From: a virus
IMG/VR virus record: IMGVR_UViG_3300032282_001564
Coordinates: 49,158 to 113,157 of that record
Length of the DNA: 64,000 nucleotides
Reading direction: 5' to 3' (one strand)
Position numbers and translations under genes: made by a program. Positions 1 to 18,703 of the stretch are shown piece by piece. The notes under the pieces are model-generated. The model saw only the letters and a program-made list of their open reading frames with translations. It made no database searches and was not told the DNA's origin. Positions within the stretch are counted from its first letter, which is position 1; each line of letters begins with the position of its first letter.

Positions 1-132
1 GGTGTTTCACAAGCCGCTGACCATATACACTCAATTACAATAACAGGTAATACTGGATCTATTGGTTCTAGTACATCATTTGATACACGCCCACCATATT
101 ATACATTGTGCTTCTTACAAAAGGCGTATTAA
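1..132 (+). CDS. Tail fibre / collar protein, C-terminal end (partial)
   Basis: Frame 1 is open from the window edge to a TAA at 130-132, giving the last 43 residues of a longer protein. The segment has an H-I-H-S stretch, a glycine/serine/threonine-rich turn region and ends in DTRPPYYTLCFLQKAY. That ending is typical of phage tail-collar and fibre tips, where R-P-P-Y is followed by a short hydrophobic strand. It probably acts outside the cell as part of the adsorption apparatus. The stop overlaps the ATG of the next gene (TAATG), so the two are likely translated together. Family assignment rests on the terminal motif only. Confidence 0.7.
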   Translation, partial: GVSQAADHIHSITITGNTGSIGSSTSFDTRPPYYTLCFLQKAY

Positions 133-3577: not shown

Positions 3578-3606
3578 TTGACATACCGGGTGTAGACTAG
3601 TATAAT
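3578..3606 (+). promoter_or_regulatory. Sigma70-type promoter for the modification operon
   Basis: TTGACA (3578-3583), a 17-base spacer and TATAAT (3601-3606) match the bacterial consensus exactly. It faces the gene starting at 3632 and probably drives the long operon to about 18.7 kb. Confidence 0.85.
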
Positions 3607-3631: not shown

Positions 3632-3946
3632 ATGAGCGAACTCGAAAAACTTACTGCCGAAATACGACAGGCCACTGATTATCAAATTAATAAACGCATC
3701 CTACGAGAAAAAATCCAAACAGATTTGCATTTACCCTATAATGGCGGATTGTTTAAAATTACACCCGAGCTATTAGCCTTTATGCAAGGTTGGCCAATTG
3801 ATGATATGTATCTTGAAGATGCATATGGTAATCCTATTCAAGTTGACCGACAGGTATTTTTGATTCAAGCACAACAGCATTATCAACAAGTAATGAACAG
3901 ATGGCATCAACAACATGGCGAACTTAAGAAAATCCGCAAAGTCTAG
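3632..3946 (+). CDS. Conserved-looking small protein, unknown function
   Basis: A 104-residue soluble protein, first gene after the strong promoter at 3578. It is mostly helical, with charged N-terminal helices and a C-terminal Q/H-rich helix ending in KKIRKV. A central segment (residues 35-70, GLFKITPELLAFMQGWP) looks like a compact folded core. No catalytic motif or membrane segment is visible. It overlaps the next gene by 32 bases in another frame, so it is likely coupled to the glycosyltransferase-like genes downstream. Confidence 0.6.
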   Translation: MSELEKLTAEIRQATDYQINKRILREKIQTDLHLPYNGGLFKITPELLAFMQGWPIDDMYLEDAYGNPIQVDRQVFLIQAQQHYQQVMNRWHQQHGELKKIRKV

Positions 3947-4730
3947 GGGCGCCGTAGTATTTGCTCTTAATAACGGGCAAACAGATTATGTAGCCATGGC
4001 GGATCAAACAAGCCGTTTGATCCAACACAACATGGGCATGCCAGTTACACTTGTTACAGATTTAACCAGCGAACCGGAGTTTGCGTATGATCGTATTGTT
4101 CGTATAGACATTGCTGGACACAATTTTAAATTAGATAATGCCACAGTTCGTTGGCGTAATTTTGGACGCTACATGGCATACGAAGCCAGCACATATGATG
4201 AGACATTGTTGCTAGACACTGACTATCTAGTACTTGATGATAGTTTGTTAAAATTATTTGCCACGGACTTTGACTATAGACTAATGCATCACAACGTAAC
4301 TGATTCTGGTCCGCTGTATGAAGAAATGGGAGAAACTAGTTTACCATTTATCTGGGCCACAGTAGTAGCATTTAGAAAAACTGAACGCTCAAGACTATTC
4401 TTTAATCTTGTTGGACGTATACAACGTAATTACAACTACTATAGGACTTTGTTTAATGTTCGCGAAAGTAATTTTAGAAACGATTATGCATTTGCAATGG
4501 CTAATATAATTATAAGTGGTTACGACATTAACGAAGACCAAGGCATTCCTTGGCCAATGTACACATTAGAAAAACCAGTGGTGTCTATTAAACCTACTGA
4601 TAATTTCTTACATGTCAAGTACGCCGATTTGGCAACAGTAGTTCCTTACCAGAATATACACGTAATGGATAAAGAATATTTGTTAAGTGACAATTTTAAA
4701 AATTTAGTAGGAGAACTCTGTGAATCATAA
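3915..4730 (+). CDS. GT-A-like glycosyltransferase
   Basis: A 271-residue soluble protein. After a basic N-terminus comes VVFALNNGQTDYVAMA, then a beta-alpha pattern ending in LLLDTDYLVLDD (about residues 94-105). D-T-D in that setting resembles the DxD metal/nucleotide-sugar site of GT-A glycosyltransferases. It probably transfers a sugar from a nucleotide donor, acceptor unknown. The next gene is a paralogue. RBS-like bases overlap the upstream coding end, consistent with coupling. The family is inferred from the DxD region and alternating strand/helix pattern, not from a database match. Confidence 0.55.
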   Translation: MANLRKSAKSRGAVVFALNNGQTDYVAMADQTSRLIQHNMGMPVTLVTDLTSEPEFAYDRIVRIDIAGHNFKLDNATVRWRNFGRYMAYEASTYDETLLLDTDYLVLDDSLLKLFATDFDYRLMHHNVTDSGPLYEEMGETSLPFIWATVVAFRKTERSRLFFNLVGRIQRNYNYYRTLFNVRESNFRNDYAFAMANIIISGYDINEDQGIPWPMYTLEKPVVSIKPTDNFLHVKYADLATVVPYQNIHVMDKEYLLSDNFKNLVGELCES

Positions 4731-5538
4731 AGAACAAGCTGGCTTTGTTACTTTTGCACAGAACACAGACCAAGTTGATTATTTAGAACTGGCCGCAGTA
4801 CAAGCACAAAACATTAAACTAACACAAAAGTTAAATCGTACAGCAGTAATAGTAGATAGTGCAACCAAGGAAAAAGTAAATGACGATCATCGTGGCGTTT
4901 TTGATTATATCATTGATCTTCCCCATGATTATAATGATCCTACTAATGCTAGAAAGTTTGCTAATGAGTGGCAAGTCTTTTGGCTTACGCCTTTTAAAGA
5001 AACTGTTAAATTAGAAAGTGATTTACTGTTTACTCGTAGCATTGATCATTGGTGGACAGCATTTAGGTTACGCAACGTTTGTTTAAGCGTAGGGGCAAGA
5101 GATTATCGCGGTAATAGAAATTATAAAAATTTATACCGTAGAGAATTTCCAGAAAATGAACTACCTGATGTATACAACGGATTAATGTATTTTAGATATA
5201 GCCAAGAAGCTGTACAATTTTTTAATGTTGCCCGTGCTGTTTTTAATAATTGGGCACACATAAGAGACAACCTACTGATTAACTGTAGAGATGAAACTCC
5301 GAGCACAGATGTACTGTATGCGGTTACTGCACTTATAGTTGGACCAGAAAATTGTACAGCACACAGTTTAGATTTTATAAACTTTACACACATGAAATCG
5401 GCATTCAATGGATGGAGTGATAACCGTATGTGGACCGACACAGTAGTCGGCGAAACAGATGGTAATATGATACGAATTAATAATTTAAATCAATACCATC
5501 CGGTACATTACTACGATAAAGATTATGTTAAAAGATGA
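4720..5538 (+). CDS. GT-A-like protein, paralogue of the preceding gene
   Basis: A 272-residue protein starting at GTG 4720, four bases after AGGAGAA-type Shine-Dalgarno sequence. It shares the opening pattern of its neighbour (GFVTFAQNTDQVDYLELA versus AVVFALNNGQTDYVAMA). Where the neighbour has D-T-D this copy reads LESDLLFTRSIDHW, keeping one aspartate, so metal binding may differ. It may be a transferase with changed specificity or a partner subunit. Family is inferred from similarity to the neighbour. Confidence 0.5.
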   Translation: MNHKEQAGFVTFAQNTDQVDYLELAAVQAQNIKLTQKLNRTAVIVDSATKEKVNDDHRGVFDYIIDLPHDYNDPTNARKFANEWQVFWLTPFKETVKLESDLLFTRSIDHWWTAFRLRNVCLSVGARDYRGNRNYKNLYRREFPENELPDVYNGLMYFRYSQEAVQFFNVARAVFNNWAHIRDNLLINCRDETPSTDVLYAVTALIVGPENCTAHSLDFINFTHMKSAFNGWSDNRMWTDTVVGETDGNMIRINNLNQYHPVHYYDKDYVKR

Positions 5539-5866
5539 AGATGTATTTGCGTTACTAACTCCTGCACCGCAAGTAGAAATAGAGTATAGGATCTACTACA
5601 ACGATGCAGGCGATATTACGCATTGCTCAATGATAGAACACGCCGATGGAAATTACATTGTTGTGGATAAAGACACATACAATAATTATTTCCAATACCA
5701 CATAGTCAACGGTAAGTTAAAAAAGATAGAATCGGACGCTAGATATATCGTAAAATTGCGTAAGTCAACAAAAGGATATCCTGTAGTAGCAGGAAACGCC
5801 AGCTTAATATTAGAGCCGGGCGAAACACATGAAAATATAGAATACTATGAACGAACAGATAATTGA
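5525..5866 (+). CDS. Small protein of unknown function
   Basis: A 113-residue protein that overlaps both neighbours (14 and 20 bases). The predicted strands (EIEYRIYYNDAGDI, NYIVVDKDTYNNYF, RYIVKLR) suggest a small beta-rich fold. It has no signal peptide, membrane segment or cysteine cluster. It lies between glycosyltransferase-like genes, so an accessory role there is possible, but nothing in the sequence demonstrates it. Confidence 0.5.
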   Translation: MLKDEDVFALLTPAPQVEIEYRIYYNDAGDITHCSMIEHADGNYIVVDKDTYNNYFQYHIVNGKLKKIESDARYIVKLRKSTKGYPVVAGNASLILEPGETHENIEYYERTDN

Positions 5867-6743
5867 TATTGCTGATATAGATTGCATTTACCTTAGTTAT
5901 GATGAACCACGTAAAGAAGAATTTTGGATTATGATTCAAAATATGGTTCCTTGGGCTGAACGTGTTGATGGTATTAAAGGGTCAGACGCCGCACATAAAG
6001 CGGCCGCAATGACTAGTACCACTGATTGGTTTGTACTAATTGATGGAGACAATATACCAGACCCTGACTTCTTTAATAAACAATTAATACTAACAGACGA
6101 ACACCAAGGTGGTGCATTTCGTTGGCGAGCTCGTAATGTTGTTAACGGATTAATGTATGGCAACGGTGGTATGAGTGTGTGGTCAAAAGAATTTGTAATG
6201 AATATGCGTACACACGAAGCAAGTGATGGTACTGCGGCCAACGATGTAGAGTTTTGTTTTTATCCTAACTACTACAGTATGAATGATTGTTATAGTACAA
6301 CACATCCTAATGCTACTCCATTCCAGGCCTGGCGTGCCGGATTCCGCGAAGGTGTTAAGATGTCGTTAGATCGCGGAGCAAAGCCTAGTCTTGAAGAATT
6401 TGAACAGCGTGTACATAGTCGCAATTATGATCATTTGTGCATTTGGCAAAGCGTTGGCGCCGACGCAGAAAATGGCTTTTGGTCTATTTACGGAGCACGA
6501 CTTGGTACTTACATGACCATGATTGAAGGATGGAATCACAAAGAAGTACAAGACTTTGATGTGCTGGCTAAACTATGGGAATCGTTTAGCCAAGACGGCG
6601 CTGACCAATGTTGTAGTGTAGGCGACACACTACGTAGAAAATTAGGCATGCCTATAGTAGATATGGATCCTGCTGAAAGTGAGTTCTTTAAACATCACTA
6701 CAGATCGCAACATAAAAATTTAGGAATAATGATTCGTGAGTAA
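5847..6743 (+). CDS. Glycosyltransferase-like protein (GT-A-type, DGDN motif)
   Basis: A 298-residue soluble protein. After DCIYLSYDEPRKEEFW comes a GT-A-like core with WFVLIDGDNIPDPDFF (about residues 54-69); D-G-D resembles a DxD nucleotide-sugar site. A second block, NVVNGLMYGNGGMSVWSKEF, and FQAWRAGFREGVKMS recur in the C-terminal half of the reverse-strand protein at 31779-33434, so the two are paralogues. It probably transfers or senses a sugar moiety. It is in the operon directly before the radical SAM cluster. The exact activity is unknown. Confidence 0.55.
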   Translation: MNEQIIDIADIDCIYLSYDEPRKEEFWIMIQNMVPWAERVDGIKGSDAAHKAAAMTSTTDWFVLIDGDNIPDPDFFNKQLILTDEHQGGAFRWRARNVVNGLMYGNGGMSVWSKEFVMNMRTHEASDGTAANDVEFCFYPNYYSMNDCYSTTHPNATPFQAWRAGFREGVKMSLDRGAKPSLEEFEQRVHSRNYDHLCIWQSVGADAENGFWSIYGARLGTYMTMIEGWNHKEVQDFDVLAKLWESFSQDGADQCCSVGDTLRRKLGMPIVDMDPAESEFFKHHYRSQHKNLGIMIRE

Positions 6744-8121
6744 AAGCGATTTTATGTCTGCCGCAGAGCAGATGCAGGCAAAGCTAGGCCCAGCACTATG
6801 TTTGGCTAAATGGAAACAAGTAAGTTTACATTTACCTACAGGGTTAACTAACAGTTGTTATCATCCTCCGCTACACACAATCGATGCTGAAGAGATTAAA
6901 ACAAAACCCGGAGCACTACACAACACAGCACATAAAAAGGCTCAGCGTGTTATTATGCTTAAGAATGAGCGTCCGCAAGAGTGTAGTTATTGTTGGACAC
7001 AGGAAGACTTAGGTAATTTAAGCGATCGTCATTATAGGTCAGGTGAGCCTTGGGCCGCAGAAGATTATGACGTTATTAAAAACAGCAAAGGAACTGAAGA
7101 TGATGTTATTCCGTCGTATGTCGAGGTTAACTTTAATCATGCGTGTAATTTGCGATGTAGTTATTGTAGCCCTCAGTTTAGCAGTAGCTGGCAAACAGAA
7201 GTGGACAAGTATGGCGGCTACCCAACAAGTGTCATTCATAATGATCCTAGTCATTTTACTGGCAATCGTCGGCCTATACCACATTCCCACGATAATCCTT
7301 ATGTTGATGCCTTCTGGGAATGGTGGCCTACACTATATCCTAAACTAAAACATTTCCGCATGACCGGTGGTGAGCCATTGATGGACAAGAATACATACAA
7401 AGTATTTGACTATGTATTGGCCTTACCTAACCCAGAATTGCATTTGGATGTGACCAGCAACTTCAGTGTGGAAGATAACTTGATGAATAAGTATCTTGAC
7501 TATGTAAAACAATTATGTTCTACACAAATTGAACATTTTATGCAGTATGTTAGTGTAGACACCGGCAACGTCAAACATGCTGAATATATCAGGCACGGAC
7601 TTGATATGAATCGACTACACGAGAATGTCAACAGATTCTTAACAGAAATTCCATACCGTAATAGTCTAACATTTATTATTACCATGAATAATCTAAGTGT
7701 ACTTGGATTACAACGACAATTAAATTGGATTCTTGAATTGCGTAAAAAGTACAGCACTACATATCAACGTGTTTGGTTTGACACTCCGTTGCTACGTACA
7801 CCGACTTGGCAAAGTCTACAAATACTGCCACCTGTGTATGCCGGTGTGCTAGAACGTGTGGCCGATTGGATGGAATTACATTTAGAAACCGCAGACAAGC
7901 CATTTCAAGGTTTTAAAGACTATGAAGTACAGCGTATGCGTAGGGATATAGATTGGATGAAAGAAGGTTGTAATCTAGATCCAAAATATGTTAAACTGCA
8001 ACGTGCAGATTTTTATCGTTTCTTTAATGAACACGATAAACGTCGTGGCACAGACTTTTTAGCAACATTTCCTGAAATGCGAGAATTTTGGAAAGAATGT
8101 GAGTACCATGCCAAGAATTAA
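6736..8121 (+). CDS. Radical SAM protein with N-terminal auxiliary Cys region (1 of 6)
   Basis: A 461-residue enzyme starting at GTG 6736, eight bases inside the upstream gene. The CX3CX2C motif (HACNLRCSYC, C137, C141, C144) binds the [4Fe-4S] cluster that cleaves S-adenosylmethionine. FRMTGGEPLMDK is the GGEP SAM-binding motif. N-terminal cysteines C22, C41, C83 and C86 (ECSYCW) look like ligands of an auxiliary cluster. Most SPASM/twitch domains are C-terminal, so this order is unusual. Members of such families often modify peptides. The substrate is unknown. The next gene is a close paralogue. Confidence 0.85.
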   Translation: MSKSDFMSAAEQMQAKLGPALCLAKWKQVSLHLPTGLTNSCYHPPLHTIDAEEIKTKPGALHNTAHKKAQRVIMLKNERPQECSYCWTQEDLGNLSDRHYRSGEPWAAEDYDVIKNSKGTEDDVIPSYVEVNFNHACNLRCSYCSPQFSSSWQTEVDKYGGYPTSVIHNDPSHFTGNRRPIPHSHDNPYVDAFWEWWPTLYPKLKHFRMTGGEPLMDKNTYKVFDYVLALPNPELHLDVTSNFSVEDNLMNKYLDYVKQLCSTQIEHFMQYVSVDTGNVKHAEYIRHGLDMNRLHENVNRFLTEIPYRNSLTFIITMNNLSVLGLQRQLNWILELRKKYSTTYQRVWFDTPLLRTPTWQSLQILPPVYAGVLERVADWMELHLETADKPFQGFKDYEVQRMRRDIDWMKEGCNLDPKYVKLQRADFYRFFNEHDKRRGTDFLATFPEMREFWKECEYHAKN

Positions 8122-9457
8122 TAACGAGTCAGACTTAGAATACAAACGCCGTGTAATTGACATTAAGTCAGAAAGTTTCTGCGGTGCAAAATGGTATAAC
8201 GCTACTATATGGCTAGGTTCAGGTATGACTACAAGTTGTCATCACCCTTTACCGCATAAGGTAGAAGTAGCAGATGTCATAGCAAATCCTAAAGCATTAC
8301 ACAATACAACACAAAAGAAGATAGAACGCAGTCAGATGCAAAAGGGCGAACGTCCTACAGGTTGTGAATACTGCTGGAAAATCGAAGACATTGGTCGCGA
8401 CAATATTAGCGACCGTGTTTATAAAACTGTTATATACCAAGACAAGGACTTAGACTATGCATACAATCTTGACCCAACCACTGATGTGGATTTACAAACT
8501 CTTGAAATCGCCTTTGACCGCACCTGCCAGTTTGCTTGCTCTTACTGCAACCCTGCCTTTTCTTCCACCTGGGTCAAAGATATCGATCGCAATGGCCCTT
8601 ATACTGGCCTTGTCAGTGATGGCCGTAACCATTTCACTCATTCGCATGGAAGTAGCCAACTATACCGCTTTGGTGAAGAAAATCCATATGTCACAGCTTT
8701 CCACAAGTGGTGGGAATCAGATCTACATAAGACGCTTCAAGAACTCCGTATTACAGGTGGAGAGCCACTTATGTCAGGCGAAACGTGGAAACTTATCGAT
8801 TGGTTTAAGACGAACAAGGGCAAAAGCAAGACACGTCTAGCAATTAATAGTAACCTAGGTACACAAGTAGATATTGATCGTTTGCTTGCAAGTATTGATG
8901 GTGTTGAAATAGATTTATATACCAGCAACGAAGCAATGAATCTACAGGCCGAATATATCCGCGATGGGCTTGTATTTGATGATTGGGCAAACAATGTAGA
9001 ACGACTACTAGACTCAGGTAAGTTCCGTGGGCTTCACGTTATGTGTACAATTAATGCCTTGTGTCTCGATAGCCTTGATAGTTTTCTTGAAATGGTTTAT
9101 AACTGGAAACTAGAATACGGCAAAGACAGTATTAATTTTTCTCTAAATATATTACGCTTTCCTAGTTTTCAAAGTCCGCTAGTATTACCTGACTCGTCAA
9201 GAACGTACTATAGAGAAAAACTGCAAGAGTGGCTGGATCATAACTACAGCAGTGAATTTATACACCGCTTTGAACTTGATCAGTTAAAACGATTAATAGA
9301 TTATCTTGACGTAGTTAAAACTCCACATGCCGGCGCCGCAGAGCAAGAAATATTGCGTAGGGATTTTAAATTGTTTTATCAACAATACGATCAACGCCGC
9401 GGCAAAAACTTTACAGAAACATTTCCTGCATTAGCAGAATGGTATAATACACTATGA
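8099..9457 (+). CDS. Radical SAM protein with N-terminal auxiliary Cys region (2 of 6)
   Basis: A 452-residue paralogue of the preceding gene. The radical SAM cluster is C143, C147 and C150 (RTCQFACSYC) and the SAM motif is RITGGEPLMSG. N-terminal cysteines C28, C47, C89 and C92 (GCEYCW) match those of the first copy. GTG 8099 is the annotated start; an ATG nine bases later would also work. Bases about 8465-8690, which encode the cluster, use C-rich codons (GCC, ACC, TTC, TCC) unlike the rest of the gene, suggesting recombination with a diverged relative. Substrate unknown. Confidence 0.85.
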   Translation: MSTMPRINNESDLEYKRRVIDIKSESFCGAKWYNATIWLGSGMTTSCHHPLPHKVEVADVIANPKALHNTTQKKIERSQMQKGERPTGCEYCWKIEDIGRDNISDRVYKTVIYQDKDLDYAYNLDPTTDVDLQTLEIAFDRTCQFACSYCNPAFSSTWVKDIDRNGPYTGLVSDGRNHFTHSHGSSQLYRFGEENPYVTAFHKWWESDLHKTLQELRITGGEPLMSGETWKLIDWFKTNKGKSKTRLAINSNLGTQVDIDRLLASIDGVEIDLYTSNEAMNLQAEYIRDGLVFDDWANNVERLLDSGKFRGLHVMCTINALCLDSLDSFLEMVYNWKLEYGKDSINFSLNILRFPSFQSPLVLPDSSRTYYREKLQEWLDHNYSSEFIHRFELDQLKRLIDYLDVVKTPHAGAAEQEILRRDFKLFYQQYDQRRGKNFTETFPALAEWYNTL

Positions 9458-10770
9458 GTAAAGACTTTTATAACAAAGGTTACGATTATATGGCTCGCAA
9501 GCCATATTTCATTGAACGTGAAGAACTAACACCACGCCAATGGCAATTACTAACTGAAAGCGATCGCTTCTGTATGCTTCCGTGGATGCACATGCATGCC
9601 TTTCCGGATGGTCGTGCTTATCCTTGTTGTTTAGCTGACTACTGGCATCCAGTCGGTGATTTACGCAAAGACACAATGGCGGAAGTATGGAACCAAGACG
9701 CATATAAAACAATGCGTACAAATATGTTAACTGAGCGTGAGTGCAAAGAGTGTACAAAATGTTACGAACAAGAAGCAAATGGTTTCTTTAGTATGCGTAA
9801 CGATAGCAATCGTAATTATGGACATCATATAGCCGAAGTAGAAAACACCAAGCCAGATGGCACTAACCCAGAATTTAAAATTCGTTATTGGGACGTTCGC
9901 TTTAGTAACTTATGTAATTTTAGCTGTCGTAGTTGCGGTCCTATTTTTAGCTCAAATTGGTATAACGATCATGTAAAGTTATATAATCGTAAACCTGATG
10001 TACTTGGTCGTGATATGGCTAGAGTTGAATACACTACCGGTGACGAAGATAATATGATAGCTCAAATGATGCCACACGTACCACATCTAGAGCAAGTATA
10101 CTTTGCCGGTGGCGAACCATTGATCATGAAAGAACATTACTTTCTGTTAGAAAAATTAGAAGAACTAGATAAAACAGAAGTGCGAATTCAATACAACACA
10201 AACTTTAGCGAACTACGCTACAAGGACAAGCACGTATTTGATTACTGGCGAAAGTTTAAGAATGTCAGTGTGGGTGCAAGTCTTGATGCTAGTGGAGCCA
10301 GGGCAGAGCTAATGCGTAAAGGAACAGACTGGGCACAAGCAGTTGATAACCGTCGACGTATGCAAACAGAAGTGCCACACGTAGACTTTTATATCAGTGC
10401 CACAGTTAGTGCTATGAACATTCTACACGTACTAGACTTTCATCAAGAGTGGACTGAATTAGGATTAATTAGAGCACAAGACTTTAATGTAAATATTTGC
10501 CAAAGTCCCGAATGGTATCGTATTGATATCTTCCCTGAATGGTTTAAGAACGATGTTATTATTCCTGCATATGAACGACATATTGCTTGGTTGGAGCCAC
10601 AGGATAATCTTAAACGTGCCACTAACGGATTTAAGTCAGCCTTGAACTTTTTACGTTCCGGAGATCAAAGTCATCACTGGCCACGCTTTGTAGAAGAAAT
10701 ACGTAAGTTAGATGAAATACGTGGCGAAGATTTTTGGGCAACTTTCCCAGAGCTTGCTAGTTTAAAATGA
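9454..10770 (+). CDS. Radical SAM protein with SPASM-like N-terminus (3 of 6)
   Basis: A 438-residue enzyme. Residues 40-110 carry a SPASM-like pattern: C40, then C58-C59 in RAYPCCLAD, an E-V-W-N helix, and C97, C100, C103. This is normally found after the radical SAM barrel, not before. The radical SAM cluster is C154, C158 and C161 (NLCNFSCRSCG), and YFAGGEPLIMKEH binds SAM. Such proteins modify peptides or proteins. The start overlaps the upstream stop as ATGA, so it is coupled to the other radical SAM genes. Confidence 0.87.
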   Translation: MSKDFYNKGYDYMARKPYFIEREELTPRQWQLLTESDRFCMLPWMHMHAFPDGRAYPCCLADYWHPVGDLRKDTMAEVWNQDAYKTMRTNMLTERECKECTKCYEQEANGFFSMRNDSNRNYGHHIAEVENTKPDGTNPEFKIRYWDVRFSNLCNFSCRSCGPIFSSNWYNDHVKLYNRKPDVLGRDMARVEYTTGDEDNMIAQMMPHVPHLEQVYFAGGEPLIMKEHYFLLEKLEELDKTEVRIQYNTNFSELRYKDKHVFDYWRKFKNVSVGASLDASGARAELMRKGTDWAQAVDNRRRMQTEVPHVDFYISATVSAMNILHVLDFHQEWTELGLIRAQDFNVNICQSPEWYRIDIFPEWFKNDVIIPAYERHIAWLEPQDNLKRATNGFKSALNFLRSGDQSHHWPRFVEEIRKLDEIRGEDFWATFPELASLK

Positions 10771-11768
10771 TAAACTATAAAGATATACGTAGCGTACATT
10801 TTGAGATTAGTACTAGATGTAATAGTACTTGTCCTGATTGTCCACGCAACTTTCGCGGGGTAGACTTAGTAGATACATATCCAGTTACTGATATGAGTCT
10901 TGCTGATGCTAAACGTGTGTTTACTGTTGATTTCCTACAACAGTTAAATCATATTACTATCAATGGTAACTTTGGTGACTTTGTTACTGCACGTGATGGA
11001 TTAGAAATTGTAAAGTATTTTAAATCGGCTAACCCTGGTTTGTATATAGAAATTAGTACCAACGGTAGTGCTCGCCCGGACATCTGGGATCCATTAGGTC
11101 GACTAGGTGTTAAAGTTTATTTTAGGCTTGATGGATTAAAAGACACACATCATCTATATAGACAGGGAACAGACTTTGAGTTTATACTAGATAATGCCAG
11201 CAAATTTATTGCCGCCGGTGGCAATGCAGTTTGGTCTATGATTGTATTTGATCACAATCGCTACCAAATTGAAGAAGCCAGAGCAATGAGCCAAACTTTG
11301 GGTTTTCAAGAGTTTGATGAAGTATACGCAGGGAGAGATGTAATGCCTGTGTTTACTAGAGATAAAAAATTAAGTCATGTAATTGGTGACTATCGCGGTA
11401 GCACAGATTTTGATCAACTATTCAATGCCTATAACTATTATAAAGTAGATCCTACTGTAGCGGTAAAGGCAGAAAAGACAAATTATAAAATTGATTGTTA
11501 CGCTAAACGTAATCAAGAAATATACATCTGTGCCAATGGCGAAGTTTATCCTTGCTGTTGGATTGGCAACTATCCACGACATAGTTGTGCTCGCCCTAGT
11601 AACTATCAACTACAGCCGTTAATTAAAGACAACAACGCAATTGAACATGGAATAGAAACAGCCATTACATGGTTCAACCAAATAGAAAAAACTTGGGATA
11701 TAGATGGAGTCCCAAATGGTAAAATATATGAATGCAACGAAACCTGCGGAATTAAAAATGCTTCCTAA
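10767..11768 (+). CDS. Radical SAM protein with C-terminal SPASM-like region (4 of 6)
   Basis: A 333-residue enzyme with its CX3CX2C motif at the very start (C18, C22, C25 in RCNSTCPDCPRN). Unlike its neighbours the extra cysteines are at the C-terminus: KIDCYAKRN, then YICANGEVYPCCWIGNYPRH, and final C residues in YECNETCG. This is the conventional SPASM order. It therefore differs in architecture from the other five and may act on a different substrate or recognise a shared one. ATGA overlap at the start supports co-translation. Confidence 0.85.
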   Translation: MINYKDIRSVHFEISTRCNSTCPDCPRNFRGVDLVDTYPVTDMSLADAKRVFTVDFLQQLNHITINGNFGDFVTARDGLEIVKYFKSANPGLYIEISTNGSARPDIWDPLGRLGVKVYFRLDGLKDTHHLYRQGTDFEFILDNASKFIAAGGNAVWSMIVFDHNRYQIEEARAMSQTLGFQEFDEVYAGRDVMPVFTRDKKLSHVIGDYRGSTDFDQLFNAYNYYKVDPTVAVKAEKTNYKIDCYAKRNQEIYICANGEVYPCCWIGNYPRHSCARPSNYQLQPLIKDNNAIEHGIETAITWFNQIEKTWDIDGVPNGKIYECNETCGIKNAS

Positions 11769-12972
11769 GACTATCTGTATGCTACCTTGGATTAGTGTTG
11801 AAACTAGCCCAATGGGTACAGTACGCCCGTGCTGTATGGCACATGATGAGATAGTAGATGACAATGGAAAGAAATACGACTTAAATGAAACAACGATTGA
11901 AGAAGCGTACCATAGTACTTATATGCAAAAATTGCGACAGGAGTTCCGTGATGGAAACAGACCGGGAACCTGTAACCGCTGTTGGGAGGAAGAGGCAGCG
12001 GGCCGAGACAGCAAACGAATCCACAGTCAAGTTCGTCTTAAAGAACTGTTTAAAAAAGTAGACTGGGATAATAACAATCCTGACCAACTTTGGTTTGTTG
12101 ATTTAAAACTAGGTAATATCTGTAACTTAAAATGTCGTATATGTGGCTCGTGGTCCAGCTCAAGTTGGGCTACAGAAGAAATGGCCTACTTAGAACCTGG
12201 ACGCAACAAGAAAGAACACATTGCCTACACTTGGTTAAAACAAGGCGCATGGCCACGTAAGACAACAACGTTCTGGGATAATATGCGTGAGCTTATTCCT
12301 AACATCAGATACTTTGAGTTTACTGGCGGTGAGCCTTGGATGATTCAGGAGCACTGGGACCTATTAAAATTTGCCGCAGATAATAGATACAGTCAAAACA
12401 TTGACATACATTACAACACCAATGCCACACAAGAGCTAGGCGAACATACTGCGGTATGGAGCAAATTTGGTCGGGTAGACATTGCCTTCAGCGTTGACAA
12501 TGTGGAAGAACGTTTTGAATATGAACGTTACGGTGCTGATTGGGTGTTGGCAAATAAAATCATCGACGATGTGCATTTTGCCAAAGAAGTGGATAGCCCT
12601 AACATAACCACACAACTTTGTTTTACTATCAATATTCAGAATGTTTACTACCTAGATGAATTACTTGCGTGGGCAAACACTAAAAACTTTGGTGACATAT
12701 ATTTTAATATGCTACACAGTCCAGACCATATGAGCATACAGCATATGACTCCGCAAGCACAAGAATTAGTCTTAAACAAACTTAAAACTACATTTTGGAC
12801 TAGCCGTAAGTATCAAGAAGAAATCAATAGTGTCATTAATTTTATCGAAGCGGGCCCAGGTAGTGATGGTCAAGAGTTCTTACGTAAAATGAAACAAACA
12901 GATGCGTATCGCAAACAAGACTTTAGAGATACACATAGAGAAATAGCTATTGCTATGGGTTATGAAGATTAA
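11758..12972 (+). CDS. Radical SAM protein with SPASM-like N-terminus (5 of 6)
   Basis: A 404-residue protein when started at ATG 11758, giving MLPKTICMLPW, which parallels the start of the sixth copy (MNKPETLCMAPW). An upstream in-frame ATG at 11704 would give a long overlap. N-terminal cysteines are C7, C25-C26 and C72/C75 (TCNRCW). The radical SAM cluster is C122, C126, C129 (NICNLKCRICG) and the SAM motif is FTGGEPWMIQEH. It probably acts on a peptide or protein; substrate unknown. It overlaps both neighbours by about ten bases. Confidence 0.85.
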   Translation: MLPKTICMLPWISVETSPMGTVRPCCMAHDEIVDDNGKKYDLNETTIEEAYHSTYMQKLRQEFRDGNRPGTCNRCWEEEAAGRDSKRIHSQVRLKELFKKVDWDNNNPDQLWFVDLKLGNICNLKCRICGSWSSSSWATEEMAYLEPGRNKKEHIAYTWLKQGAWPRKTTTFWDNMRELIPNIRYFEFTGGEPWMIQEHWDLLKFAADNRYSQNIDIHYNTNATQELGEHTAVWSKFGRVDIAFSVDNVEERFEYERYGADWVLANKIIDDVHFAKEVDSPNITTQLCFTINIQNVYYLDELLAWANTKNFGDIYFNMLHSPDHMSIQHMTPQAQELVLNKLKTTFWTSRKYQEEINSVINFIEAGPGSDGQEFLRKMKQTDAYRKQDFRDTHREIAIAMGYED

Positions 12973-13903
12973 ACTAGTTCACTTCAACAATGAATTTGGT
13001 AAATTTGTTTACCCAGCGTTTGCTGATTGTTTTTCTAACTACTTTGAATTAGAAGAATATGATACTACAAAAACGTACGATAAAGCCAGTACTGTATTTG
13101 TAATTAACACGCATCAATATATTTTTGTTAATCATTTAGTAAACGATGGATACAAAGTTTTAGTAGAAAATCTACAGGAAAATTCTATTAACACACCATT
13201 GTCAGGCGAGCGAGTACAGCATATGATTTGTGTACACGATACTCGCATTACTGATATGATTACTGTACCTTTGTATTTTTGGTACAAAGAAAGTCGGCAG
13301 TTTGACTACAGGTCTTTACCAAGAACTAACACAGCCGATCTTAAATTTTTATTAATGATGAATTACCAAAGGGGTTTTAGAGATGCAATACATTATGTGT
13401 TTGACGACATACGTAATGAAGGCCTATATAGCTATGTTAGCCACGGCATACAAATGCCCAGAGACATTAGGCAAAGCCAACCCCATTGGGATAGATACAT
13501 TAACGCCGAATGGTATAACCGTACACAATTTAGTGTAGTAGTAGAAACGGCAATGACCCGTGGCCCAAGGGAAGTTTTTATAACAGAAAAAACAACAAAG
13601 CCGTTGGCAATGCGGCATCCGTTTATTACTTTGGCTTGTCCCGAAACACTAGCATTACTTAGAGCCGCAGGATTTGAAACGTACAATAACTTATTTGACG
13701 AAACATATGATACGGTCTTAGATGAACATGAAAGAATTAGAAACGTATATCAACAAGTAAAAAATTACAACCATAATGGTTACGATAAAATTACACAAGA
13801 TAAAATAGACTATAACTATAATTACTTTTACGATTATAATCAAGTAAACAAAAGATTTACACAAGACATAGTAACACCAATATTAGAATTTGCCAATGAA
13901 TAA
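12962..13903 (+). CDS. GT-B-like glycosyltransferase with TEK-KP motif
   Basis: A 313-residue soluble protein starting at ATG 12962, near the radical SAM stop. The C-terminal third has FSVVVETAMTRG, then VFITEKTTKPLAMRHPFI and GFETYNNLFDETYD. This T-E-K-x(2)-K-P block followed by a G-F-x-T and D-E-x-Y-D run resembles the donor site of fucosyltransferase-like and exostosin-like GT-B enzymes. The protein at 33433-34587 has the same block and is a paralogue. It is embedded between two radical SAM genes, which points to a shared pathway. The sugar donor cannot be read from sequence. Confidence 0.6.
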   Translation: MKIKLVHFNNEFGKFVYPAFADCFSNYFELEEYDTTKTYDKASTVFVINTHQYIFVNHLVNDGYKVLVENLQENSINTPLSGERVQHMICVHDTRITDMITVPLYFWYKESRQFDYRSLPRTNTADLKFLLMMNYQRGFRDAIHYVFDDIRNEGLYSYVSHGIQMPRDIRQSQPHWDRYINAEWYNRTQFSVVVETAMTRGPREVFITEKTTKPLAMRHPFITLACPETLALLRAAGFETYNNLFDETYDTVLDEHERIRNVYQQVKNYNHNGYDKITQDKIDYNYNYFYDYNQVNKRFTQDIVTPILEFANE

Positions 13904-15197
13904 ACCCGAAACACTATGTATGGCTCCATGGGTACATACTTACCTAAGCCCGCAAACTGAAAGACGTATGTGCTGTGCGTCTAGAGAGCCTGCACAAAAC
14001 TTTCAACAGTATATTGACACTAGTTCGGGTACTGGAAAGTACATACCTATTACGTTAGATAAGCATTGGAATAGTGAACACATGCGTAGTGTACGTCGAC
14101 GCATGATGGCCGGAGAAACATTACCAGAATGCGAAGTGTGTAATGACAAACTTTTAAACACAGACGTTTACCGTAGTTATTTTGAACGCCTGTTTGGGCA
14201 TAAGTATTTACAAGTAGTAGAAAATACAGATTCTACAGGCTATACAACAATGAAGCCTGTTTCGTGGGATTACCGTTTCAGTAATCTTTGTAACTTCAAA
14301 TGTCGTATGTGCGGTGATATGTTATCCAGTGCTTGGGAAACAGAACAACGTCAACATAATATGATCGACTGGAAAGATCCAAACACACACTGGATGAAAC
14401 CTGAAGTCAAAGAGCAAATAACGAAGTTTCAAGACACCCAGGTAGAGCAAGAGTTTGCTACTGCTGTTGAAGAGCACCGAATAGAAGAGGTGTATTGGGT
14501 GGGAGGTGAACCGCTAATGTACGAACAACATTGGAAGTATATGCGGCGCATCATTGAACTTGGAGATGGAAAAAATGTTTATGCTAGGTATAACACAAAT
14601 CTTAGTCGCGTTAATTATCGTGGTATTAATCTCTATCGGGACATACTATCTGGGTTACGTGACTGGCAAATCTGTGCAAGCATCGACGGAACGGGCAGAA
14701 TTGGAGAGTATATTAGATCAGGTCTTAATTTTGATTCGTGGCTTGAGAATCTCCGCGAGGGACTTAACTACAACCGTAGCCGCCGCCAAATCCGTTTGGA
14801 TTTCACTCTTACTACACCAGGACTCTTTGAAGTACAAAAGATACAAGAACTTGCGGACTCGCTCGGAATAGATGTTCTTGCCAAAGTAATTTTTAGTTTT
14901 AGCCCGGACATAGTTATGTCACCTTTAGCCCTACCCAAGGACGTATTACATCCTTGGGTAGACGAGATTATTAACCAGATGCAACATTCCGGCGGCGCCT
15001 TAAAGGATATCTTAGTCCAGCTAAAAACTAGACCTACTTTTGCTGAACAGTGGCCTGACACTTACCAACAAATGGCTCTAAAGGGCAAATTAAGAACTTT
15101 AGAGATTGAAAAAATTCGAAATGACAAGTATACTATGCGTGACATCTTGGCAGAACGTCCAGACGCATTAGCTTGGTGGGATTCAATTGGCAATTAA
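13896..15197 (+). CDS. Radical SAM protein with SPASM-like N-terminus (6 of 6)
   Basis: A 433-residue enzyme when started at ATG 13896; a TTG six bases upstream is also open. Auxiliary cysteines are C8, C26-C27, C79 and C82. The radical SAM cluster is C132, C136, C139 (NLCNFKCRMCG) and the SAM motif is YWVGGEPLMYEQH. It is the last of the six. Bases 14550-14870 have altered codon usage and contain an overlapping open frame with a membrane-like segment (14575-14871), reported in the findings. The substrate is unknown. Confidence 0.85.
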   Translation: MNKPETLCMAPWVHTYLSPQTERRMCCASREPAQNFQQYIDTSSGTGKYIPITLDKHWNSEHMRSVRRRMMAGETLPECEVCNDKLLNTDVYRSYFERLFGHKYLQVVENTDSTGYTTMKPVSWDYRFSNLCNFKCRMCGDMLSSAWETEQRQHNMIDWKDPNTHWMKPEVKEQITKFQDTQVEQEFATAVEEHRIEEVYWVGGEPLMYEQHWKYMRRIIELGDGKNVYARYNTNLSRVNYRGINLYRDILSGLRDWQICASIDGTGRIGEYIRSGLNFDSWLENLREGLNYNRSRRQIRLDFTLTTPGLFEVQKIQELADSLGIDVLAKVIFSFSPDIVMSPLALPKDVLHPWVDEIINQMQHSGGALKDILVQLKTRPTFAEQWPDTYQQMALKGKLRTLEIEKIRNDKYTMRDILAERPDALAWWDSIGN

Positions 15198-16266
15198 AAT
15201 ACTATTAAGCAACCCTTTACTTAGAAATGATTTTGTTGATTACACAATCGTTCCTAACGATACCCTGCTGGCACATGATTGGCAACAGGCCTTAAAAGGA
15301 ATATTGCAGTCGGGAAATTTATTAGAAAAAAACTTTTGCTTTATGGGCTTTCCAAAAACAGCTCGTACAGTAGAATATTTGTGTAATGAATTAAACGAAC
15401 ACGTAAAGACTATTAATAAGTTCTTTGACAACGAGTATTTTATTTGGGAAATATTTACTCCTGACAATGTAGTGGGATTTGACTATGCTGAAAATGGCAT
15501 TAACCACGACATGATGAATAAGTTACATAATCACTTTGAACGTTTACAAGGTACTGTTGGCGGATTAAGTGTTTATTACCGAAGTGCTGATTATGAAACA
15601 AAGTATGCTATACGACAATTAAATAATATTTGTCACGAGTTAGAAACATTGATATTAAGCAGACGTAAACTAGCAACAGATCCGTATTGGGTACGCCCTA
15701 GCCAAATTACTACGTTCCTACAAGCACAACGCTATGACTTAAAACAGGAACATCGTCAAGGCTTTGTTACCAACGGATATGATCGTGTCTTTGGCGGCGT
15801 CTATATGCATTGGACACAGATAGGCAAGACATTGTTTGAAGTATTCCGTGATGAAAATGCTCCAGAGCTAACAGCAACAGTATGTGAAGCTATTACAGAA
15901 TTAAAATACTACTCGGGCGAATTCGACATTGAGTGGGGCAATAATGTAGTGCGTAATGGTGGTCATCCTTGGCACGACAAAGAACAAAGTCATTTTGAAC
16001 AGTGGTTAATTGAAAACAATAGAGATCCTCAGGATCCTGAATTGAGTTTAGGCTACTTGCCATTGGGACAAGTAGATTTAATGGCCAGCTTTGGGACCAC
16101 AGATTACAAACAAATTTGGGACGTATTAGGTAGTCACTTAGATATACACAGTATAGAAATAGATGGAGTCAGTAGGACCTACGAGTATTGTTGGTCAAAT
16201 CCTGGCTACAAACAAATGCAAATAGATATAATGAAGCCAGGATATGATTATAGTAGCCGGGGGTGA
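15187..16266 (+). CDS. Unrecognised 359-residue protein of the modification operon
   Basis: The protein would start at TTG 15187, overlapping the upstream stop by 11 bases. It is soluble and mixed alpha/beta. Notable segments are CFMGFPKTARTVEYLCNEL, an amphipathic helical region (residues 100-170) and NGGHPWHDKEQSHFEQWL near residue 260. Histidines and acidic residues in that last segment could bind a metal, but no known motif is matched. It lies between the last radical SAM gene and the SGNH hydrolase and overlaps both, so it is likely part of the same pathway. Confidence 0.55.
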   Translation: MAIKILLSNPLLRNDFVDYTIVPNDTLLAHDWQQALKGILQSGNLLEKNFCFMGFPKTARTVEYLCNELNEHVKTINKFFDNEYFIWEIFTPDNVVGFDYAENGINHDMMNKLHNHFERLQGTVGGLSVYYRSADYETKYAIRQLNNICHELETLILSRRKLATDPYWVRPSQITTFLQAQRYDLKQEHRQGFVTNGYDRVFGGVYMHWTQIGKTLFEVFRDENAPELTATVCEAITELKYYSGEFDIEWGNNVVRNGGHPWHDKEQSHFEQWLIENNRDPQDPELSLGYLPLGQVDLMASFGTTDYKQIWDVLGSHLDIHSIEIDGVSRTYEYCWSNPGYKQMQIDIMKPGYDYSSRG

Positions 16267-17056
16267 TAGTTTTGTTTACGGTAGTGAGTTAGCAGACTGT
16301 AATGGAGAATACAGTCAAAGCACCTTTACGGCGCTACTAGCCAGTGGACAAGAATACGAATGTGTAGCGTGGCCGGGCAACGGCAATGACGCTATTGCTC
16401 GTCGTGTTGTCAGTGAGTGCGAAGCACTATATCCAGTAAAACCTTTTGTTATTGTGTCTTGGACTTTTCCCGGACGATATGAATTCCGTTTTAACTACCA
16501 TACTGGACAGCGTACAGGCAATTGGTACAGCATCAATGCCTGGACAGTAGAACAAGATGTTACTCGTATTGAACGCGAGTTTATGATAGAAGACAAAGAT
16601 ATATTAGATTATCAAGTTGCTACAATTAAACGTGCTAGACAAACCGGTGTTGCTGATTTTGCTGAAACTTTTTACAAACACATAGGTGATAGCGAGTACT
16701 GGGAAGTATACAGTAGTCTTAAAGAAATAGTATATTTGCAAAACTATTTAAAAGCCAATGGCATTGGTTATATGTTTACTTGTGCAGATAATAGCATTTG
16801 GTACAACTACACTATCAATAATGCCGACACTACAATACATAGCCTAACTGAACAAATACACAGAGACCAGGAGCATTGGTTTTGGTTCCCTGCAGGATCC
16901 GGTAGTCATCAAACCGAACAGCCAAGAGGGTTTTACCAATGGGCAGTAGAGAATAAATACCCAGTAGGCACTACACATCCTCTCGAAGCGGCACACGCTG
17001 ATGCCGCTAAATTAATGAAAGATCAATTCAATGAACTGGTTAAAAAATCTGTATAA
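16244..17056 (+). CDS. SGNH/GDSL-type hydrolase (1 of 4)
   Basis: A 270-residue protein with the blocks of SGNH hydrolases: the nucleophile block GGDSFVYGSEL at the N-terminus, WPGNGNDAIARR with the G-x-N-D element, and HPLEAAHADAA near the C-terminus with the catalytic His. These are usually esterases or acetyl-transfer enzymes. Three paralogues lie on the reverse strand (36966, 40721, 41403). It overlaps the upstream gene by 23 bases. A role in removing or moving acyl groups on a glycan is possible; the substrate is not evident. Confidence 0.7.
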   Translation: MIIVAGGDSFVYGSELADCNGEYSQSTFTALLASGQEYECVAWPGNGNDAIARRVVSECEALYPVKPFVIVSWTFPGRYEFRFNYHTGQRTGNWYSINAWTVEQDVTRIEREFMIEDKDILDYQVATIKRARQTGVADFAETFYKHIGDSEYWEVYSSLKEIVYLQNYLKANGIGYMFTCADNSIWYNYTINNADTTIHSLTEQIHRDQEHWFWFPAGSGSHQTEQPRGFYQWAVENKYPVGTTHPLEAAHADAAKLMKDQFNELVKKSV

Positions 17057-17132
17057 CAGAATTAAGTTAGAAATTCGCTATCGCAAAAAACTTAAAGAGT
17101 TGCGTAAACGTGATCCTTTTATTTACAAATGA
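17031..17132 (+). CDS. Basic 33-residue peptide
   Basis: ATG 17031 opens a short frame ending at TGA 17130-17132: MNWLKNLYNR, a K/R-rich helix (YRKKLKELRKRDP) and a terminal FIYK. It starts inside the SGNH gene in another frame, and its stop overlaps the halogenase ATG as ATGA. That placement and the amphipathic, highly basic composition support a real gene. It holds one Trp (W3) and three Tyr. It may bind nucleic acid or act as a small partner; whether it is a substrate of the neighbouring enzymes is speculation. Confidence 0.65.
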   Translation: MNWLKNLYNRIKLEIRYRKKLKELRKRDPFIYK

Positions 17133-18703
17133 TTAATGTTTGCATAGTTGGCGGCGGCTTTACTGGATGGATGACTGCGGTTATCCTAAAGAAAGAATGC
17201 CCTCGGGCTCGTATTACTATTATTGATAGCCCTACCGAGCCACAACGCATGGGCGTCGGCGAAAGCTGTCCTGACAATTGGCTCATATGGTTATTAGACC
17301 ATCTTAAAGTACCAATGGATCAACGTAGCGATTGGTTTAAGAACTGGCTACTTGAAACTAACAGTATGCTCAAGTATGGTGTACGTTGGTATGATTGGAA
17401 TGGCGTAGGCACAAGAGATTTCTTAGTTCCATGGACTCCAAACTCAGACGCACATAATATAATGAATGGCGGAATTATACAGTTTCCCAAGACAGCCGCT
17501 GATGCATACAAGATGTCAGACATATGGTATGAGTTGTACTTGCAAGGCCGACGCAACATAGAAGATTTTAACGTTGACCTAGGCGACCTATATTGGACTA
17601 TCAGTCAAAATCGTGTTCCATACTATCAAGGTAAGTTTCATAATTTCCAAAGTTACACTTGTCAAATTAATACCACAGATGTAACAGCATGGTTCAAACG
17701 CACATACGCACACGAAATAGATCAAATATTAAATGTAACAATAGCCGACGCAGAATTAACAGAATCGGGTGCTGTCCGTGCTGTAGTTGATACAGAAGGC
17801 AACAGACATACTGCCGATCTGTTTATTGACTGTTCGGGTTTTAAACGTATTTTTAATCGTTACGTAGATTTTGATTTCCGTCCTGGATATAATCGTGTTG
17901 TCCATCGTTCAGCGGCTGTTACTATCAATCGTTATAACAGCAACGAAGATATACTAAATGAAATGGTGCCTTACACACGTTTCAATACTATGCGTAATGG
18001 CTGGCGCTGGGAAATACCTTTACTAAAGACCAAGAGCTTTGGTTATGTCTTTGATAGAGAATTTACTAACAAAGAAGAAGCATTTGCTGAGTTAACAGAA
18101 CGCACAGGTACTGACCGTCGTGTATTAGATCCTGTGCTAATAGAATGGGAACCAGGATTCTGCAGACGTGCTTGGTCTAAGAATGTAATTACCTTGGGAC
18201 TAAGTACAGGCTTCATTGACCCAATTGATGGTAACAGTATTGCTACACAACGATTACAAATAGATCATATTGTTAATGCTGTACGTAACCCTACTAGCCT
18301 TAACACTGAACGTGAAACATACAATCAAAAAGTTGACCGTATGTTTGCAGATATCTGTTTACGCAAAGATGTAACCTTCTGTCTAGCACCACGTAATGAT
18401 ACAGCCTATTGGCAACGCAATAAAACTCTTTATGATAAACAAGAATTATTAGATCGTTGCCGTGAGCGTCTAAACAATAATGAGTTCTACGGACGTTACC
18501 CATTGTTCTACGACAATGCTTGGCTAGTTTATTTTATCTACTACGGCAATGATGCCAGTTTCCGTACACGCACAAGCGACCCTGAGTTCTTAGATTTTGC
18601 AGATACTTTCTTTGTACATAAAAACAAAGTAGGACAAGCCCGTGCAAAAATCATGCCTACCCAAGTGCAATGGCTTGATTCTATTGGTGCAAAAGTGTTG
18701 TAA
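17129..18703 (+). CDS. Flavin-dependent halogenase (tryptophan halogenase family)
   Basis: A 524-residue protein close in length to PrnA-type halogenases. The FAD-binding GxGxxG is VGGGFTGW (residues 7-14), followed by GVGES at 42-46. K82 (NSMLKYGVRWYDW) is placed like the lysine that carries the halogenating species. GWRWEIPL is the WxWxIP motif that distinguishes these from monooxygenases. In the segment equivalent to PLEST this protein reads DPIDGNSI, so the usual glutamate is Asp. Viral members are known, including the cyanophage iodinating enzyme VirX1. It is the last gene of the operon. A flavin reductase is not seen nearby. Confidence 0.88.
   Translation: MINVCIVGGGFTGWMTAVILKKECPRARITIIDSPTEPQRMGVGESCPDNWLIWLLDHLKVPMDQRSDWFKNWLLETNSMLKYGVRWYDWNGVGTRDFLVPWTPNSDAHNIMNGGIIQFPKTAADAYKMSDIWYELYLQGRRNIEDFNVDLGDLYWTISQNRVPYYQGKFHNFQSYTCQINTTDVTAWFKRTYAHEIDQILNVTIADAELTESGAVRAVVDTEGNRHTADLFIDCSGFKRIFNRYVDFDFRPGYNRVVHRSAAVTINRYNSNEDILNEMVPYTRFNTMRNGWRWEIPLLKTKSFGYVFDREFTNKEEAFAELTERTGTDRRVLDPVLIEWEPGFCRRAWSKNVITLGLSTGFIDPIDGNSIATQRLQIDHIVNAVRNPTSLNTERETYNQKVDRMFADICLRKDVTFCLAPRNDTAYWQRNKTLYDKQELLDRCRERLNNNEFYGRYPLFYDNAWLVYFIYYGNDASFRTRTSDPEFLDFADTFFVHKNKVGQARAKIMPTQVQWLDSIGAKVL

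What the first reader, a model, noticed from the sequence alone, without database searches (positions are those of the whole stretch)
6736..18703. Radical SAM / glycosyltransferase / halogenase operon beside tail-fibre genes
Six radical SAM proteins, a GT-B-like protein, an unrecognised 359-residue protein, an SGNH hydrolase, a 33-residue basic peptide and a halogenase form one overlapping operon, preceded by GT-A-like proteins and fibre genes with a 2OG oxygenase. No phage pathway I know uses this combination. It may decorate the fibre, a host glycan or a small peptide.
Basis: partly seen in the sequence, partly recalled or inferred. Interest (0 to 1): 0.78.

Follow-up and report, generated by a model that had tools for sequence, protein, structure and literature searches.

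The report
Phage radical-SAM decoration gene island
A large uncultured bacteriophage carries, right behind its tail-fibre genes, a conserved row of sugar-adding and radical-chemistry enzymes shared with hundreds of related wild phages but almost absent from cultured ones; it probably decorates the structures involved in recognising its host, and it contains a protein with no known relatives outside phages and no known fold.

Summary
The operon is real. Sixteen genes (window 3632-18703) overlap end to end and start just behind a perfect sigma-70-type promoter after the fibre genes. In 87 relatives with enough flank, the core rS1-rS2-rS3-rS5-rS6 upstream of the 359-aa protein (U359) is kept: rS2, rS5, rS6 in 87, rS3 in 83, rS1 in 82. 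The halogenase follows in 0 of 86, rS4 is in 5 of 87, the GT-B-like gene in 21 of 87: accessories. Instead a carbamoyltransferase follows in 84 of 86; in this window that block is inverted and about 18 kb away. The 33-aa peptide is coding and almost invariant (80/80), but it tracks the carbamoyltransferase, also where no radical SAM is seen, so it is probably not a RiPP precursor. U359 is phage-specific, matches no solved fold, and is once naturally fused to the SGNH protein. Relatives carry 5-16 radical SAMs each. Best reading: a glycan or glycoprotein tailoring island of a T4-like 'host recognition cluster', acting on fibre or host surface. Such islands with radical-SAM cassettes have been reported; this fixed core, U359 and the microprotein-carbamoyltransferase pair I have not found described.

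The parts
108..722 (+). 2OG-Fe(II) oxygenase between fibre genes
   Evidence: PF13640 E 6.5e-9
706..2532 (+). fibre-like protein (fib1)
   Evidence: ORF; homologues at the same place in 4 of 4 relatives
2548..3567 (+). fibre-like protein (fib2), last gene before the operon
   Evidence: ORF; same place in 4 of 4 relatives, 39-46% identity; no Pfam hit
3578..3606 (+). sigma-70-type promoter-like site TTGACA-17-TATAAT; the -10 box lies in the loop of an inverted repeat
   Evidence: 12/12 match; record has 2 such sites, 0.2 expected on shuffling; TTGACC-17-TATAAT at the same boundary in L246, TTGATT-17-TATAAT in L247, a -10-like box in L248 and L249. Function not shown
3632..3946 (+). g104, small protein, first gene of the operon
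   Evidence: no Pfam hit; same place in 4 of 4 relatives
3915..4730 (+). GTA1, GT-A-like by inspection
   Evidence: same place in 4 of 4 relatives; distantly similar to GTA2, E 1e-5; no Pfam hit
4720..5538 (+). GTA2, GT-A-like by inspection
   Evidence: conserved between GTA1 and g113 where flank allows
5525..5866 (+). g113, unknown small protein
   Evidence: conserved between GTA2 and GTA3
5847..6743 (+). GTA3, GT-A-fold glycosyltransferase-like protein
   Evidence: AF2 pLDDT 82.7; Foldseek best hits RmlT, HddC, SunS, K4CP, E 5e-4, TM about 0.3
6736..8121 (+). rS1, N-twitch radical SAM
   Evidence: NF033640 305 bits, cut-off 170; in 82 of 87 relatives
8099..9457 (+). rS2, N-twitch radical SAM
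   Evidence: NF033640 285 bits; 87/87
9454..10770 (+). rS3, N-twitch/SPASM radical SAM
   Evidence: NF033640 399 bits; 83/87
10767..11768 (+). rS4, radical SAM of another subfamily, accessory
   Evidence: PF04055 E 1.5e-8; NF033640 only 16 bits; 5/87
11704..12972 (+). rS5, N-twitch/SPASM radical SAM
   Evidence: NF033640 332 bits; 87/87
12950..13903 (+). GTB, GT-B-like protein, accessory
   Evidence: no Pfam hit; similar to GTBb over its C-terminal part, E 9e-15; 21/87
13890..15197 (+). rS6, N-twitch/SPASM radical SAM
   Evidence: NF033640 291 bits; directly upstream of U359 in 97 of 103 loci
15187..16266 (+). U359, phage-specific protein of unknown fold
   Evidence: at least 546 viral relatives, 2 metagenome-assembled cellular contigs; AF2 pLDDT 91.6; no PDB match
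16244..17056 (+). SGNH-like protein related to DUF6071
   Evidence: S9, G45, N48, H245 invariant; 8 of 35 homologues hit PF19547; fused in frame to U359 in L077
17031..17132 (+). 33-aa DPFIYK microprotein
   Evidence: in 80 of 80 U359 loci; family coupled to a carbamoyltransferase
17129..18703 (+). flavin-dependent halogenase, accessory, at a rearrangement junction
   Evidence: PF04820; RebH E 2.2e-38 and phage VirX1 E 1.5e-33; absent behind the peptide in 86 relatives
34737..37625 (-). kinase/nucleotidyltransferase-like protein, carbamoyltransferase (35525-37000) and second SGNH-like protein: in relatives this block directly follows the peptide, here it is inverted
   Evidence: PF02543, PF16861, PF01583; PF19547; position in relatives
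29717..34587 (.). NDP-sugar epimerase (+), DegT aminotransferase (+), two-part GT-A-like protein P556 (-), GT-B-like GTBb (+): sugar genes of the same inverted block
   Evidence: PF01370 E 1.6e-41, PF01041 E 1.1e-74; P556 similar to GTA3 E 9e-14; order in relatives

Best explanation
The unit is a glycan or glycoprotein tailoring island of a T4-like phage, sited in the host-recognition region behind the fibre genes and read from its own host-type promoter. Inferred mechanism: the epimerase, aminotransferase and nucleotidyltransferase-like genes supply activated sugars; the GT-A-like proteins put sugars on an acceptor; the five orthologous N-twitch radical SAM enzymes make five separate C-H modifications (for example epimerisation, dehydration or cross-linking) on the acceptor or its sugars; U359 works with the SGNH protein, probably as one assembly, at an acyl-transfer or trimming step; the carbamoyltransferase, with its 33-aa partner, caps hydroxyls with carbamoyl groups. 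The halogenase is a late local addition in this phage. I favour the phage's own fibres as acceptor over a host surface glycan. Shown: gene content, motifs, overlaps, conserved order, fibre adjacency, coupling of peptide and carbamoyltransferase. Inferred: substrate, order of reactions, every chemical step.
For: Core order kept in about 100 viral contigs; the genes are co-inherited, with pairwise-distance correlations at the floor of p 0.005 on 199 permutations for all pairs but one (0.010); rS6 identity 65-84% where the capsid protein has 78-92%. The fibres-fib2-g104-GTA1 order is kept in 4 of 4 relatives. Sugar genes belong to the same block in relatives. GTA3 has a GT-A-type fold. The carbamoyltransferase's solved relatives act on small molecules and antibiotics (novobiocin carbamoyltransferase, GdmN, TobZ). 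U359-SGNH natural fusion. Precedent for such islands in pelagimyophages (PMC7029224).
Against: No substrate is shown. The operon has its own host-type promoter-like site apart from the fibre genes, which fits early expression and host-surface modification at least as well as fibre decoration. SPASM/twitch radical SAMs often act on peptides. GTA1, GTA2 and the GT-B-like gene are assigned by inspection only. The GTA3 structural match has a low TM-score (about 0.3).
Confidence: 0.5

Rival explanations
1. Early host-surface remodelling: the same enzymes alter the host's surface glycan so that competing phages no longer adsorb (superinfection exclusion or serotype conversion).
For: Own host-type promoter-like site at the head of the operon, with a similar box at the same boundary in relatives; pelagimyophage islands of this kind were read as O-chain modification by their authors (PMC7029224).
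Against: No flippase, O-antigen ligase or acetyltransferase membrane protein was noticed among the ORFs read (not searched systematically); the position beside the fibre genes is conserved in 4 of 4 relatives.
Confidence: 0.27
2. RiPP-like pathway: the 33-aa peptide is a precursor modified by the radical SAMs, and here halogenated on its conserved Trp.
For: Peptide in all 80 U359 loci with Trp near the N terminus in 79, next to SPASM-type radical SAMs; the halogenase follows with a 4-nt overlap here.
Against: The peptide family follows the carbamoyltransferase rather than the radical SAMs: 69 of 74 loci where U359 was not seen have a carbamoyltransferase within 2.2 kb, and two such contigs of 68 and 108 kb have no match to rS6. 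Sequence nearly invariant, unlike variable RiPP cores. Halogenase absent behind the peptide in relatives.
Confidence: 0.09
3. DNA or nucleotide hypermodification: the transferases and radical SAMs act on modified bases.
For: A phage carbamoyltransferase of this superfamily modifies 5hmC (PMC8670742), 26% identical to the one here; the record carries QueE-, QueD- and FolE-like genes and a possible DpdA (by inspection).
Against: The carbamoyltransferase is closer to antibiotic-tailoring enzymes. The thymidylate synthase has the dUMP-type motif FNIASY (sequence; residue assignment from general knowledge). The paper reports carbamoyltransferases next to glycosyltransferases on unmodified contigs. 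No TET-type oxygenase was recognised.
Confidence: 0.08

Closest known systems
Host recognition cluster of pelagimyophages and other T4-like marine phages (PMC7029224)
   Same: Behind a giant baseplate/tail protein, with fibre genes and glycosyltransferases; radical-SAM cassettes were noted as the difference between two genomes
   Different: Here a fixed ordered core of five radical SAMs plus U359, SGNH protein and carbamoyltransferase, kept across many contigs; that paper describes the island as hypervariable and does not assign the radical SAMs
N_Twi_rSAM, NCBIfam NF033640
   Same: Five of the six radical SAMs score 285-399 bits against a cut-off of 170
   Different: Family of unassigned reaction; here up to 16 copies per phage genome
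Multi-radical-SAM T4-like marine virus TARA_ERS488813_N000010 (PMC5332604)
   Same: 12 radical SAM genes in a T4-like genome
   Different: Treated there as iron-sulphur metabolism; no cassette described
VirX1 and RebH flavin-dependent halogenases
   Same: Long similarity, GxGxxG and WxWxIP motifs
   Different: Acidic site reads FIDPID instead of FVEPLE; substrate unknown
TobZ / GdmN / novobiocin O-carbamoyltransferases
   Same: Both Pfam halves present; best PDB hits
   Different: Family here coupled to a DPFIYK microprotein
DltX microprotein with the SGNH protein DltD (PMC12148441)
   Same: Small protein with a Tyr in an F-X-Y motif near its C terminus, beside an SGNH-like gene
   Different: No FXYXXF hexapeptide, no obvious membrane span, no MBOAT partner seen: an analogy only

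Membership tests
N_Twi_rSAM (NF033640) | score above curated cut-off of 170 bits | tested here: met
   rS1 305, rS2 285, rS3 399, rS5 332, rS6 291 bits
N_Twi_rSAM (NF033640) | rS4 belongs too | tested here: not met
   rS4 scores 16 bits
Radical SAM superfamily | CX3CX2C cluster motif conserved | tested here: met
   intact in all homologues at 40% identity or more for all six
SPASM/twitch auxiliary cluster | conserved extra cysteines | tested here: met
   N-terminal C...CC...CxxC at least 98% conserved in rS3, rS5 and rS6 (one further Cys of rS3 only 44%); four N-terminal Cys at 92-100% in rS1 and rS2
RiPP biosynthetic cluster | precursor peptide tied to its radical SAM | tested here: not met
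   peptide family also found with a carbamoyltransferase where no radical SAM is detected
RiPP biosynthetic cluster | peptide is modified | not testable with these tools
   needs mass spectrometry
Flavin-dependent tryptophan halogenase | GxGxxG, WxWxIP and the aligned lysine | tested here: met
   GGGFTG at 8, WRWEIP at 292, K82 aligned with a RebH lysine
Flavin-dependent tryptophan halogenase | acts on tryptophan | not testable with these tools
   assay needed
SGNH hydrolase superfamily | Ser, Gly, Asn and His invariants | tested here: met
   S9, G45, N48, H245 invariant in 35; assigning them to the SGNH blocks is inference
SGNH hydrolase superfamily | fold | not tested
T4-like host recognition cluster | located behind the giant VrlC-like protein with fibre genes and glycosyltransferases | tested here: met
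   that the giant protein is VrlC is inference
T4-like host recognition cluster | bounded by neck gene gp14 | not tested
   gp14 was not looked for
5hmC carbamoyltransferase | acts on 5hmC, with a dCMP hydroxymethylase nearby | tested here: inconclusive
   26% identity; thymidylate synthase is dUMP-type by its motif
DltX acyl shuttle | C-terminal FXYXXF and a transmembrane helix | tested here: not met
   ends in PFIYK, charged body without a long hydrophobic run

The most novel reading that the evidence does not exclude
The DPFIYK microprotein is a carbamoyl (acyl) carrier: the carbamoyltransferase loads the C-terminal tyrosine and the flanking SGNH proteins, one of them working with the new-fold protein U359, pass the group to a glycan that radical SAM enzymes have modified on the fibre. 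This would be a phage-borne soluble analogue of the DltX-DltD acyl shuttle.
Probability: 0.07. Interest if true: 0.9.

Novelty: new variant of a known kind. Interest (0 to 1): 0.62.

Why it matters
It turns scattered mentions of radical SAM genes in uncultured T4-like phages into a defined, ordered, co-inherited machine with testable parts: five orthologous enzymes, one protein of unknown fold, and a near-invariant microprotein tied to a carbamoyltransferase. If the fibre is the acceptor, phages would be using radical chemistry to tune host recognition; if the host envelope, it would be a widespread superinfection-exclusion system. It is common in environmental viral contigs and all but absent from the cultured phages searched here.

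Tried and rejected
Near-DNA search in cultured phages: no match. U359, SGNH protein and GTA3 by tblastn in cultured phages: none; rS3 and rS6 only two Vibrio phages at 24%. Peptide by tblastn: none, possibly because low-complexity filtering masks it. Single-sequence scan of viral contigs with the halogenase: nothing. U359 against Pfam and PDB profiles: nothing significant, only uncharacterised phage proteins by fold. T4 late-promoter motif TATAAATA: absent near the operon and below chance, so late expression could not be argued. Peptide as RiPP precursor: considered first, dropped after the carbamoyltransferase link.
Full report
Observation. The window is G000:C1:49158-113157 of a 113,157-base viral record. 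From g104 (3632) to the halogenase (end 18703) all 16 genes lie on the + strand and each overlaps the next by 4 to 65 nt; the following gene is 69 nt away. Five radical SAMs belong to NCBIfam NF033640, N-twitch radical SAM, at 285-399 bits against a cut-off of 170; rS4 does not. All six keep CX3CX2C in every homologue at 40% identity or more. The halogenase is a true flavin-dependent halogenase by sequence (PF04820; RebH and phage VirX1 among solved relatives). The peptide is 17031-17132, MNWLKNLYNRIKLEIRYRKKLKELRKRDPFIYK.

Setting. The record has T4-like genes: major capsid-like and portal-like proteins, a 4225-aa tail protein and several fibres before the window, and a B-family DNA polymerase, DHFR- and thymidylate-synthase-like genes in it (these identities mostly by inspection, thymidylate synthase by Pfam). 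The first gene of the operon starts 25 nt behind the -10 box of a TTGACA-17-TATAAT site. Perfect sites number two in the record against 0.2 expected in shuffles. At the same fib2-g104 boundary, L246 has TTGACC-17-TATAAT, L247 has TTGATT-17-TATAAT, and L248 and L249 a -10-like box beside an inverted repeat with a T-rich tail. In the window and L246 the -10 lies in the loop of an inverted repeat whose arms differ between the two phages but still pair (read by eye). This is pattern evidence; promoter function is not shown.

Relatives. In the cellular genome collection two metagenome-assembled contigs matched; I suspect stray phage sequence but did not establish it. Synteny over these loci: of 103 loci with 2 kb upstream, rS6 directly precedes U359 in 97; of 87 with 8.5 kb upstream, rS2, rS5 and rS6 are in 87, rS3 in 83, rS1 in 82, GTA3 in 49 (its place is often beyond the stretch held), the GT-B-like gene in 21, rS4 in 5. 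Four to seven radical SAMs precede U359. Of 86 loci with 4 kb downstream, a carbamoyltransferase follows in 84, an SGNH-like protein in 62, the kinase/nucleotidyltransferase in 41, the halogenase in none. Loci are not all independent; some contigs are near-duplicates. Upstream, 4 of 4 relatives fetched have giant tail protein, fibres, fib2, g104, GTA1 in the window's order.

Co-inheritance. Pairwise distances of twelve genes correlate between genes (r 0.18 to 0.74; p at or near the floor of 0.005; the script's printed header says 999 permutations, 199 were run). Correlations with U359 and SGNH are lower, so some exchange occurs. rS6 is 65-84% identical to relatives in which the capsid protein is 78-92%. 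Seventeen records of this group carry 5 to 16 NF033640 matches each; none of 14 control genomes exceeds the cut-off.

Rearrangement here. In relatives the peptide is followed by SGNH-like protein, carbamoyltransferase and kinase/nucleotidyltransferase on the + strand, then glycosyltransferase-like genes, aminotransferase and epimerase. In the window these lie at 29717-37625 with every strand reversed, and the halogenase stands at the junction behind the peptide. The simplest account is an inversion; an assembly error is not excluded. Halogenases occur elsewhere in three of 20 relatives tested, never directly behind the peptide.

The peptide. It occurs in 80 of 80 U359 loci. D27-P28-F29-I30-Y31 are invariant in those 80 while their codons vary, and Trp near the N terminus is kept in 79 (one of the 81 rows printed there is an out-of-frame copy of the window and is disregarded). 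Neighbour clustering showed one common partner, a NodU/TobZ-type carbamoyltransferase, in 174 of 194 loci. Among loci where U359 was not seen, 69 of 74 have it within 2.2 kb, 50 at the ATGA overlap. A divergent homologue ending DPYIYEE precedes the carbamoyltransferase of a marine single-cell virus (L217). Two such contigs have no match to rS6. So the peptide is best seen as a carbamoyltransferase-coupled microprotein. The pattern sample was selected by its last residues, so invariance of that end is judged from the 80 U359 loci only.

U359. The AF2 model from 62 sequences is confident (pLDDT 91.6, pTM 0.88). Foldseek finds no PDB match (best E 0.6) and nine uncharacterised phage proteins, one from Agrobacterium phage Atu_ph07. 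Invariant N111, L113, H114, F117, E118 and C149-H150-E151, E153 suggest an active or metal site; that is inference. In L077 it is fused in frame to the SGNH protein, which suggests that the two act together.

Mechanism and rivals. GT-A-like fold of GTA3, sugar-nucleotide genes in the block, an O-carbamoyltransferase nearest to antibiotic-tailoring enzymes and SGNH-like proteins point to a glycan. Fibre adjacency points to the fibres; the separate host-type promoter points at least as well to the host envelope. I give the fibre/glycoprotein reading 0.5, host-surface remodelling 0.27, a RiPP 0.09 and DNA modification 0.08. No step of chemistry is shown.

Known or new. T4-like host-recognition islands with glycosyltransferases, and radical-SAM cassettes in them, were reported for pelagimyophages (PMC7029224), and a T4-like genome with 12 radical SAM genes for the ocean (PMC5332604). 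The ordered core, U359 and the microprotein-carbamoyltransferase pair were not found in the papers searched; subscription literature was not searchable. Hence a new variant of a known kind.

Noticed in passing
window 57147-58748 (-), 43611-44465 (-), 45058-45507 (-), 48156-48929 (-): A possible DpdA-like transglycosylase with QueE-, QueD- and FolE-like genes, suggesting 7-deazaguanine DNA modification; identities by inspection, the first with no Pfam hit and the second with a weak radical SAM hit.
   Followed up: partly
window 17132-37625: Block SGNH-carbamoyltransferase-kinase-glycosyltransferases-aminotransferase-epimerase inverted relative to relatives, halogenase at the junction.
   Followed up: partly
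record 11667-16556 (before the window; L092): Three further radical SAM ORFs on the - strand around gp46/gp47-like recombination genes, next to a 147-aa protein of unknown function.
   Followed up: no
L095, L097, L099, L208, L210: The DPFIYK peptide and carbamoyltransferase lie between a primase-like and a helicase-like gene in another group of viral contigs.
   Followed up: partly
L077 9971-11605: Natural in-frame fusion of U359 with the SGNH protein, 544 aa.
   Followed up: yes
L010 (Synechococcus phage S-CREM1): A halogenase beside a collagen-like protein followed by a long run of tandem 2OG oxygenases, an analogous array of tailoring enzymes near fibre-type genes.
   Followed up: no
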